DNA of 64,000 bases from Mesorhizobium ciceri biovar biserrulae WSM1271 (GTDB lineage Bacteria; Pseudomonadota; Alphaproteobacteria; Rhizobiales; Rhizobiaceae): assembly GCF_000185905.1 (NCBI RefSeq), contig NC_014923.1:1612001-1676000 (forward strand), written 5' to 3'. Numbering within the stretch: the first letter of the stretch is position 1; every line of letters begins with the position of its first letter. Shown piece by piece: positions 32,061-34,963 of this stretch. Below the pieces are notes generated by a model. It had not been told where the DNA came from, made no database searches, and saw only the letters and a list, made by a program, of their open reading frames with translations. Position numbers and translations under genes: made by a program.

Positions 32061-32205
32061 CTTCCCCCACTCCGTCGCTGCTTCGCACCTTCCTCTCCCC
32101 CCTCCGGAGGAGAGGAAGGGAGCCTCTCTTAGAGGAGTCCTGGCTACAACAGGCTCGCGCCCTTCCTCCACCCCGTCGATCGGGGGAGAGCGACTATCTG
32201 GGGTG

Positions 32206-33135
32206 TCAAGTTGCACTCGCGAACTCGTTGCGCGCATCGCGTGCTTTTGCATTGAGGATGACGAGGAGTTTTCTGGCGAGTGCGATGCGGATGAGCATTT
32301 TTGGCTTTCCCGCCTGTTGCAACCGTTGAGCGAAAGCTTTGAGATTGGGATCGAATTTGGCCACGATGGCTGCGACGATGAAGAGGATGCCACGCGGCCC
32401 GGCGCGTCCGCCGCGCACATGCCTGTTGCCGGTGCGCTTGCCGCTATCGTTGGCGAAGGGAGCGAGGCCTGCCAGCTTGGCGATGGCCTTGTTGGACATG
32501 AGGCCGATCTCGGGCAGTTCGGCCATCAGGCGGGCGACGGTGCGTCCGGCCACGCCCTTCAGCGAACGAAAGGCCTGCTCCAGCCTGGCCCACAGCGGAT
32601 CGTCATCGATCATCGAGGCAATCTCGCCTTCCAGGCGCCGTTGCTCGCGCTTGAGGAAGGCCAGCATCGCCTCGATGCTGGCGCATACCTCGGCGTCGCG
32701 TGCGGCACTTCTACGCTGCTTGTTGATGGTCGCATCGCCGACAATCTGGCAAAGCCGGCCAACCAACGCGGCAAGCCGCTGCTGGGCGGCGCTTGGCGGT
32801 GGCGTCGGCACAGTGTTCTTGACTGCGCCGTAGTGGGCGATGACAGCGGCGTCGATCCTGTCGGTCTTCTCAAGATAGCCCATCGCCTCGGCGAAACGGC
32901 GCACGCTCTTGGCATTGACCACGCCGCACGGCATGCCGTGCGCCCACAAGAGCATGAATCCCAGCCGTTCATAGCCGCCCGATGCCTCCATCACCGCAAG
33001 GGCTGCGTCATGGCTGCGGCAGAACAGCCAAAGAGCTGCGATCCCCGCCGCGTCGTTGGCGAAGCGCGCTGCCGCTCCGCCAGGCCAGACATGCGCGTCC
33101 AGCCAATCTTTCGAAACATCAACTCCACAAATAAT
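32206..33135 (-). CDS. IS110-family DEDD recombinase (transposase), atypical or lost start codon
   Basis: The frame runs from an in-frame stop at 33142-33144 down to the stop at 32206. It contains the RuvC-like DEDD residues: Asp in CGVDVSKD, Glu in VMEASGGYE, Asp pair in KTDRIDAAVIA. The C-terminal Tnp domain has the serine motif FANDSGKRTG. No ATG, GTG or TTG lies before the first catalytic Asp; ATT codons at 33133-33135 and 33130-33132 are the only initiation-like codons. The first conventional start (GTG 32994) would remove 47 residues including that Asp. So it starts at ATT or has lost its start. About 309 residues are encoded from 33135. Confidence 0.82.
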   Translation of the reverse strand: MICGVDVSKDWLDAHVWPGGAAARFANDAAGIAALWLFCRSHDAALAVMEASGGYERLGFMLLWAHGMPCGVVNAKSVRRFAEAMGYLEKTDRIDAAVIAHYGAVKNTVPTPPPSAAQQRLAALVGRLCQIVGDATINKQRRSAARDAEVCASIEAMLAFLKREQRRLEGEIASMIDDDPLWARLEQAFRSLKGVAGRTVARLMAELPEIGLMSNKAIAKLAGLAPFANDSGKRTGNRHVRGGRAGPRGILFIVAAIVAKFDPNLKAFAQRLQQAGKPKMLIRIALARKLLVILNAKARDARNEFASAT

Positions 33136-33141
33136 CCTTGT

Positions 33142-33325
33142 TCACGGTAACCTGCCTTGTGCGTACGGTTGGAACCAAGCGACTGTTCGGTCGTGCGTGA
33201 TGAAGGCGAAGATCCCAAGCTCTCCCGCGGCTGTAACCTCAGGTGGTACGGGCGACTTCGCCAAGCCAAGGTCCGGGCGGCCACCCGGACCTTGGCTCAA
33301 TCGCTCTAATCCCACGAAATCTCTC
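33142..33325 (-). ncRNA. Candidate IS110 bridge RNA (target and donor guide RNA)
   Basis: Transcribed on the minus strand, the region starts with a perfect 14-bp stem-loop (33264-33277 with 33284-33297, 6-nt loop). Next comes a loop closed by ggcgaag/cttcgcc (33256-33262 with 33205-33211) holding CCACCT (33246-33241) and GGGAGAG (33226-33220). A second loop closed by tcacg/cgtga (33200-33196 with 33146-33142) holds AGTCGCTTG (33184-33176) and ACAAG (33160-33156). The first pair matches the insertion-site flanks and the second the circle junction, each including the CT core. Order, strand sense and size (about 184 nt) fit the IS621-type bridge RNA. It ends just before the recombinase frame. 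Confidence 0.75.
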
Positions 33326-33376
33326 TCGTGTAGATACAAGGTGGCTCGGCGAAGCCGAGACGGAGTGGGGGTCGAC

Positions 33377-34878: not shown

Positions 34879-34963
34879 GCCCCTATGGCGGAATTGGTAG
34901 ACGCGCTCGACTCAAAATCGAGTTCCGCAAGGAGTGCTGGTTCGATCCCGGCTAGGGGCACCA
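34879..34963 (+). tRNA. tRNA-Leu (anticodon CAA)
   Basis: The sequence folds as a class II tRNA. Acceptor arms gccccta and taggggc pair, the D-loop contains ggtaga, the anticodon stem ctcga/tcgag encloses CTCAAAA with anticodon CAA, a long variable arm follows, and the T-arm is gttcgatcc. Discriminator A and a genomically encoded CCA end the gene at 34963. It reads UUG codons. No duplicated 3' end was found in the window, so no island attachment site is evident. Confidence 0.97.

What the first reader, a model, noticed from the sequence alone, without database searches (positions are those of the whole stretch)
33142..33325. Bridge-RNA candidate whose four guide segments match this insertion's own target and donor
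On the minus strand, upstream of the IS110 recombinase, a perfect 14-bp stem-loop is followed by two loops. Loop 1 (closed by 33256-33262 with 33205-33211) contains CCACCT (33246-33241) and GGGAGAG (33226-33220). These equal the left flank plus core and the complement of the core plus right flank at this insertion. Loop 2 contains AGTCGCTTG (33184-33176), identical over 9 nt to the predicted circle junction, and ACAAG (33160-33156), complementary to CTTGT on the left-end side. The order LTG, RTG, LDG, RDG, sense/antisense alternation and about 184-nt size follow the IS621 bridge-RNA plan. To my knowledge the guides and their match to a rhizobial intergenic repeat are not described for this element. 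Caveat: each match alone is short.
Basis: partly seen in the sequence, partly recalled or inferred. Interest (0 to 1): 0.93.

Follow-up and report, generated by a model that had tools for sequence, protein, structure and literature searches.

The report
Bridge RNA aiming at rhizobial repeats
A small jumping DNA element in a soil bacterium carries what is very likely a guide RNA, whose short segments match both the element's own ends and the repeated DNA it landed in; relatives in other bacteria differ in guide and landing site together, while this particular copy probably cannot move by itself because its enzyme gene's usual start is out of frame.

Summary
In detail: stem, loops and all four guide segments lie where stated, and a related genome has the same locus empty, with the predicted target intact and a 2-bp CT core. 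In 48 distinct related insertions with both flanks, the five non-core bases of the right target guide match the right flank exactly in 45, and in 47 if G·T pairs are allowed; guides and targets differ together between lineages (0 of 20,000 permutations reach the right-side match). The RNA fold is conserved and covaries in its 5' stem. Joined ends carry TTGAC(A/C) 17 nt before TATCT(G/A) in 57 of 58 copies, the circle-promoter layout of IS621. This is an IS110-group bridge-RNA element, a known kind. Corrections: donor guides barely vary, so covariation cannot test them; the left target guide is short (4–5 non-core bases); the window's copy, the only one in its genome, has its GTG start out of frame and probably cannot move alone. 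The new part is evolutionary: guide types in relatives aim at different repeats, and one derived lineage differs in both target guides and in target. Transcription and activity are untested.

The parts
33339..33340 (-). CT core at the left end (insertion point)
   Evidence: empty-site comparison with L104; coordinates
32189..32190 (-). CT core at the right end
32191..33338 (-). IS110-group insertion sequence (1,148 bp between the cores), single copy in its genome
33142..33300 (-). predicted bridge RNA body: 5' stem-loop, target-binding loop, donor-binding loop (transcript ends not measured)
   Evidence: fold z -3.51; structure conserved in 35 relatives
33264..33297 (-). 5' stem-loop, 14 bp perfect stem
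   Evidence: helix 1 has changes on both sides at 12 of 16 pairs
33205..33262 (-). target-binding loop, closed by 33256-33262 with 33205-33211
33241..33246 (-). left target guide CCACCT (4 non-core bases + CT)
   Evidence: equals left flank + core 33339-33344
33220..33226 (-). right target guide GGGAGAG
   Evidence: reverse complement of CTCTCCC, core + right flank
33142..33200 (-). donor-binding loop, closed by TCACG/CGTGA (33196-33200 with 33142-33146)
   Evidence: helices 6 and 7 paired in 35 of 35 sequences, almost invariant
33176..33184 (-). left donor guide AGTCGCTTG
   Evidence: identical to right end + core + first two left-end bases; not tested by covariation
33156..33160 (-). right donor guide ACAAG
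   Evidence: complement of CTTGT at the left end; invariant
32204..32209 (-). TTGACA, -35 half of the promoter predicted at the circle junction (overlaps the recombinase stop codon)
   Evidence: 17 nt before the -10 slot after circularisation; TTGAC(A/C) there in 58 of 58 copies
33331..33336 (-). TATCTA, -10 half of the circle-junction promoter
   Evidence: TATCT(G/A) in 57 of 58 copies; coordinates
32206..33135 (-). DEDD IS110 recombinase reading frame, open from 33135 but without an in-frame ATG/GTG/TTG at its 5' end in this copy
   Evidence: Pfam PF01548 + PF02371; NCBIfam NF033542 above its cut-off; IS621 8wt6 E 7.8e-24
33143..33145 (-). GTG that starts the recombinase frame in relatives; here it opens only 8 codons
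33341..33372 (.). left part of the interrupted intergenic palindromic repeat (target)
32064..32188 (.). right part of the interrupted repeat cluster

Best explanation
The minus-strand stretch at about 33142-33300 very likely encodes the bridge RNA of an IS110-group insertion sequence (32189-33340), with one loop predicted to pair with the interrupted intergenic repeat and the other predicted to pair with the element's own joined ends. Shown here: the four guide segments, the empty site with its CT core, the conserved fold, and the joint differences of target guides and target sites among relatives. Inferred from IS621 (established for that element, not tested here): the element excises as a circle, joining TTGACA to TATCTA at 17 nt and so making a promoter; the RNA is transcribed from the junction; it binds a recombinase tetramer and holds target and donor together; serine-dependent strand exchange at CT inserts the circle. 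Inferred for this copy: the RNA could still guide, but the recombinase start is out of frame, so it would need a recombinase from elsewhere.
For: Recombinase: both IS110 Pfam domains above cut-off, NCBIfam 'IS110 family RNA-guided transposase' above its cut-off, IS621 and ISCro4 as the only PDB matches at E 0.001, with the DEDD residues and the serine aligned (read by eye; residue roles from PMC11208158 passages). Empty site. RNA: fold z -3.51; 92.5% of cells paired against 29-47% when slid, 121 cells changed on both sides against 35 when shuffled. Guides: of 48 distinct both-flank insertions, right guide non-core 5/5 in 45, 47 with G·T; 0 of 20,000 group permutations reach it; left guide 4 non-core bases 0 of 20,000, 6 bases 1 of 20,000. 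Right-flank positions +2 and +3 match in 48 of 48 (expected 0.67 and 0.53). TTGAC(A/C) 17 nt before the -10 slot in 58 of 58 copies, 22 distinct junctions. An insertion in another element's IS4/5-family transposase gene rather than in a repeat (L061/L014) still matches the right guide 7/7.
Against: No transcript, circle or transposition was observed. Donor guides hardly vary, so their pairing is untested; L162's LDG differs from the junction at the core T, and others such as L160, L043, L143 and L161 match 8 of 9. The left guide is weak (4 of 4 non-core bases in 30 of 48; beyond -5 the match is at chance). L065 (two G·T), L034 (one G·T) and L037 (one guide mismatch) depart from an exact match. 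Two of five covariation measures barely exceed shuffles (pairs changed on both sides 16 against 13.0, 13 of 500 as high; further pair types 46 against 42.3, 22 of 500), and the support lies mainly in the 5' stem; target-loop helix 5 is only 78% paired. The permutation groups are related, so its counts are not probabilities; by eye only about four guide changes are independent on the tree. Eleven further right ends outside the counted set lack a known guide or sit apart from it; six read CTCATTC, CTCATTG (2), CTCCCCT (2) and CTCATCG. The window's recombinase start is out of frame. Rfam has no bridge-RNA match.
Confidence: 0.94

Rival explanations
1. Guide-flank matches are a by-product of inserting into one repeat: protein-DNA recognition picks the repeat, and GC-rich RNA segments match it by chance or descent.
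For: Most sites look like intergenic repeats rich in CTC/CCC (read by eye); elements are related; each match is short.
Against: Guides differ between clades at the positions where targets differ. L061/L014 lies in an IS4/5-family transposase gene (PF13340) and still matches 7/7. Strand logic (sense left, antisense right) follows IS621.
Confidence: 0.03
2. The structured left end is mainly a 5'-UTR control element of the recombinase mRNA, as proposed for ISPpu9, and guiding is secondary or absent.
For: The start codon and a likely AGG ribosome site lie in the donor-loop stem in all 35 aligned sequences; ISPpu9's 5'-UTR structure limits translation (PMC8450116 passages).
Against: It does not explain the joint guide-target differences. 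Predicted exposure of AGG and GTG in transcripts with or without the bridge fold shows no consistent difference in 8 elements. The two roles are not exclusive.
Confidence: 0.03
3. A relic: RNA and target were functional once, but this copy no longer works. (This concerns the copy, not what the RNA is, and can hold together with the best explanation.)
For: GTG start out of frame; single copy.
Against: Guides, fold, both ends, the promoter halves and the rest of the recombinase frame are intact, so any decay is recent; an assembly error is not excluded.
Confidence: 0.5

Closest known systems
IS621 bridge RNA / IS110 group (Durrant 2024, PMC11208160: abstract, passages, sections 5 and 7 read)
   Same: LE-encoded RNA upstream of the recombinase; 5' stem-loop plus two loops; LTG, RTG, LDG, RDG in this order and strand sense; CT core; circle-junction promoter layout; insertion into extragenic palindromic repeats; ATA/TAT beside the donor core in the window's copy.
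   Different: Guides and target differ; 7-nt right target guide (4 in IS621 as first defined, longer in some orthologues); recombinase only distantly alike.
ISEc11 / ISXne4 seekRNAs (Siddiquee 2024, PMC11187229: passages read)
   Same: Natural reprogramming: related IS whose guide regions differ where their targets differ.
   Different: IS1111 type with the RNA downstream of the gene and the reverse order of guide matches.
ISRm19 and other REP-targeting IS (Tobes and Pareja 2006, PMC1525189: passages read)
   Same: An IS110-family element (4 of 4 copies) in palindromic repeats of another rhizobium.
   Different: Predates guide RNAs; its relation to this element was not tested (no ISfinder sequences at hand).
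ISPpu9 (PMC8450116: passages read)
   Same: Element in REP sequences with a structured leader over the ribosome site; IS110 family by PMC1525189, Table 2.
   Different: Control there runs through two small RNAs, one antisense; not looked for here.

Membership tests
IS110 family, IS110 group | DEDD RuvC-like domain plus Tnp domain with conserved serine | tested here: met
   Pfam PF01548 and PF02371 above cut-off; NF033542 above cut-off; IS621 alignment keeps D, E, D, D and S (residues named)
IS110 family, IS110 group | Long left end carrying the RNA upstream of the recombinase, short right end | tested here: met
   193 nt from core to GTG; right end 15 nt between stop and core
IS110 family, IS110 group | Clean insertion at a 2-bp core without a longer target duplication | tested here: met
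   empty site L104, 2-bp overlap
[quoted passage not shown]
   the target-loop apical helix is weak
Bridge RNA | Target guides covary with target sites | tested here: met
   45 of 48 exact on the right (47 with G·T); right permutation 0/20,000; left 0 (4 bases) and 1 (6 bases) of 20,000
Bridge RNA | Donor guides pair with the circle junction | tested here: inconclusive
   sequence identity present, but the segments hardly vary
Bridge RNA | Promoter rebuilt at the circle junction | tested here: met
   as sequence only: TTGAC(A/C) at the 17-nt spacing in 58 of 58 copies, TATCT(G/A) in 57
Bridge RNA | RNA is expressed and binds the recombinase | not testable with these tools
   no expression or binding data
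IS1111 group | RNA downstream of the recombinase, in a long right end | tested here: not met
   RNA is upstream, right end is 15 nt

The most novel reading that the evidence does not exclude
This element family is a natural record of guide reprogramming in which lineages re-aim their bridge RNAs at different intergenic repeats available in their hosts. In Rhizobium the steps can be seen side by side: a copy with the old guide sits in a new repeat through a G·T pair and one left mismatch (L034), while a derived lineage on another branch (L035/G624) differs in both target guides so as to fit the new repeat and has ten left ends in one genome, the three right ends read there all being in the new repeat. 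Tolerated near-misses would come first, guide mutation second, expansion third.
Probability: 0.4. Interest if true: 0.7.

Novelty: new member of a known kind. Interest (0 to 1): 0.5.

Why it matters
It adds a rhizobial bridge-RNA element with guides, target, empty site and ends all in hand, plus a set of close relatives whose guides and targets differ together. That makes a general question testable: how RNA-guided insertion sequences acquire new targets while mostly sparing genes. Related natural guide sets may also serve as ready-made variants for studying the specificity of bridge recombinases.

Tried and rejected
Rfam: no bridge-RNA family reached at gathering score; with a loose limit only a chance-level match. 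Own genome: no second copy, so no within-genome test there. Family- and order-wide protein searches found few close relatives (6 of 394 genomes at E 1e-60, 5 of 397 at 1e-80, the own genome included); the useful set came from the window's genus (42 of 146 genomes), named genome contigs (19 loci) and the genus of G392 (10 of 148). Bridge fold as a switch hiding the recombinase start: first run indexed GTG one base off, the corrected run shows no consistent effect in 8 elements; left as unsupported.

Rows left out of the statistics: 79 oriented loci were picked by hand from those fetched; the rest were repeat fetches, empty sites or pieces. Of the 79, 12 were not used (L011, L075, L076, L079, L080, L081, L134, L144, L149, L153, being truncated; L135 and L162 for pattern reasons), and 11 of the 67 used have no right end. 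By eye, L162 matches its right guide 7/7 and L135 6/7. A later count of right ends over all loci held found 11 outside the 79: CTCATCC 4, CTCTCCC 1, CTCATTC 1, CTCATTG 2, CTCCCCT 2, CTCATCG 1; most lie on pieces without the guide, so they test nothing; the CTCATTC one (L019/L083) may belong to the split element whose left end is L082 (guide GGATGAG), which would be another G·T pair. For L135 the left-end offset was one base off (its printed -10 letters are shifted); the -35 position, taken from the right end, is not affected. Eight groups with identical short flanks were counted once, although some are different places. The 58 junctions were not thinned (22 distinct).

Repeat counts: CCCCTCATCC is common in all 14 genomes (26 to 125) and its reversed control is higher than it in the window's genome (66 against 47), so it shows no host preference. 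Against the idea that abundance alone sets the guide: G135 has 81 sites of the window-type target but carries GGATGAG elements, and G613, G647 and G688 have 25, 13 and 11 TCCCTCATTCC sites but carry GGATGAG elements. Protein structure prediction was not run, sequence evidence being enough.

Full report
What is there. The window lies in a genome of the genus Mesorhizobium (inferred: genome G052, marked 'same genus', holds the element on a contig of 905,355 bases, the length of the Mesorhizobium sp. L2C084A000 contig). At 32189-33340, minus strand, sits one insertion sequence of about 1.15 kb, the only copy in that genome. Its protein carries both IS110 domains, scores above the cut-off of NCBI's 'IS110 family RNA-guided transposase' model, and its only PDB relatives at E 0.001 are the IS621 and ISCro4 recombinases, with the DEDD residues and the Tnp serine aligned (read by eye; residue roles from PMC11208158, passages).

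Insertion point. The relative G076 has the same locus without the element: its sequence runs from window 32190 straight to 33339 with a 2-bp overlap, within GCCACCTCTCCCCC. The core is therefore CT on the minus strand. The target is part of a palindromic intergenic repeat: the 13-mer CCACCTCTCCCCC occurs six times elsewhere in the own genome and its reversed control never.

The RNA. The stretch folds as a 14-bp stem-loop followed by two loops with matching layout (z -3.51, 1 of 200 shuffles as stable). On 35 distinct relatives the structure keeps 92.5% of cells paired, against 29-47% when slid by 1-3 columns and 85.0% when 3' letters are shuffled; 121 cells are changed on both sides against 35 shuffled. 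Two other measures are only slightly above shuffles (16 pairs against 13.0; 46 further types against 42.3). The 5' stem has two-sided changes at 12 of 16 pairs; the donor loop is almost invariant, so it is conserved rather than covarying; target-loop helix 5 is weak (78%). The alignment is imperfect for the most distant rows.

Guides against targets. From 79 oriented loci, 67 gave guides and a left flank, and 56 of those also a right flank; 48 of these are distinct. The five non-core bases of the right target guide match the right flank exactly in 45 of 48, and in 47 if G·T is allowed; the last (L037) has a guide unlike its relatives'. Six guide types occur: GGGAGAG (window type), GGATGAG, GAATGAG, GGATTAG, GGGTGAG, AGGTGAG; apart from GGATTAG each fits its own targets best. 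Shuffling guides among 12 guide groups never reached the observed right match in 20,000 trials; for the left guide, 0 (four bases) and 1 (six bases) of 20,000. On the right, positions +2 and +3 match in 48 of 48. On the left the match fades beyond about five bases. The groups are related, so these counts are not probabilities; by eye the tree suggests about four independent changes. One insertion (L061/L014) lies in another element's IS4/5-family transposase gene (flanking piece matches PF13340, E 5.3e-24) and still matches the right guide 7/7, so the repeat itself is not what is matched.

Donor side. The left donor guide is identical over 9 nt to right end + core + left end in the window, and ACAAG is complementary to CTTGT; but these segments hardly vary, so covariation cannot test them. 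Joining the ends of 58 copies (22 distinct junctions) puts TTGACA (51) or TTGACC (7) at the 17-nt spacing from the -10 slot, which reads TATCTG or TATCTA in 57; the last, L135, was cut one base off and would read TAACTT. This is the layout of the circle-junction promoter of IS621 (PMC11208160 section 5). The -35 overlaps the stop codon, which may contribute to its conservation.

This copy. Of 30 elements examined, the window's included, the GTG within the donor-loop stem opens a frame of at least 308 codons in 28; in L065 it is cut at 217, and in the window it opens only 8. The rest of the window's frame is open (311 codons). So this copy probably makes no recombinase from the usual start, though an assembly error is possible. 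The finding did not note this.

Retargeting. Counts on both strands: the window-type target CCACCTCTCCC occurs 7-81 times in seven genomes of the window's genus and 1-2 times in five of the Rhizobium-type genus, with reversed controls of 1-5 in these twelve; in the window's own genome it is 7 against 3. TCCCTCATTCC, the target of the GAATGAG guide, occurs 11-28 times in those five and 0-1 times in the seven, controls 0-4. So some targets are abundant only in the host genus of their element. But abundance does not fix the guide: G135 has 81 window-type sites and G613, G647 and G688 have 11-25 TCCCTCATTCC sites, yet all carry GGATGAG elements, whose CCCCTCATCC target is common in all 14 genomes. 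GAATGAG is nested among GGATGAG elements on the tree (96/97 support for the group), so it is taken as derived. Its genome, G624 (identical sequence to Rhizobium sp. R634, L035/L137), holds ten left ends, all with GAATGAG; nine show a left flank, with T at position -3 in six and A in three, where 46 of 48 counted insertions have C, and its left guide also has T there. Three right ends read there all have CTCATTCC. L034, on another branch and with the GGATGAG guide, sits in the same new repeat through one G·T and one left mismatch. It is not an ancestor of L035, so the order near-miss, guide change, expansion is an inference from parallel cases; I lowered its probability slightly for this reason on checking.

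Known or new. Bridge RNAs, their guide-target covariation over thousands of IS110 elements, insertion into REP repeats and the circle promoter are published (PMC11208160, abstract, passages, sections 5 and 7); natural reprogramming was shown for ISEc11/ISXne4 (PMC11187229, passages); an IS110 element in rhizobial REP is known (PMC1525189, passages). No paper on guides of this element or on guides following rhizobial repeats appeared in the listings of searches, which cover open-licence PMC only; ISfinder could not be consulted. I file it as a new member of a known kind, of moderate interest, with the retargeting series as the part worth following.

Noticed in passing
33143-33145 and 33151-33153: The recombinase's GTG start and a likely AGG ribosome site lie in or beside the closing stems of the donor-binding loop, whose pairs are kept in 35 of 35 relatives; a control role is conceivable, but a simple exposure calculation did not support it.
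   Followed up: partly
L070 103-209 and 195-1363 (G052): A second, truncated left end of the same element lies directly before a complete copy, with an N at the join; tandem insertion or assembly gap.
   Followed up: no
L065 right flank (G040): The only one of 12 window-type copies with a right flank that lacks an exact right target (CTTTCTC); both differences are G·T pairs, and its recombinase frame is cut at 217 codons.
   Followed up: partly
L135 (ISMex17-family element, Methylorubrum): A recombinase only 40% identical has the same AGTCGCT right end, TTGAC spacing and a guide-like AAGTGAG opposite CTCACTC (6 of 7), so the plan reaches beyond rhizobia.
   Followed up: partly
L028 and L090 (G010); L018 and L088 (G108): Right ends followed by CTCCCCT and CTCATTG, unlike any guide type read here; their guides are not on the pieces held, so these may be further target types.
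   Followed up: no
window recombinase residues 136-245: Weak, below cut-off match to NCBIfam's TIGR-Tas endonuclease model (E 8.9e-5), in line with a distant link between the families.
   Followed up: no
34879-34960: tRNA gene on the plus strand about 1.5 kb from the element.
   Followed up: no
aligned position +6 of the right target: The base just beyond the right guide match never forms a Watson-Crick pair with the guide's neighbouring base (0 of 48, expected 0.16), as if pairing must end there.
   Followed up: no
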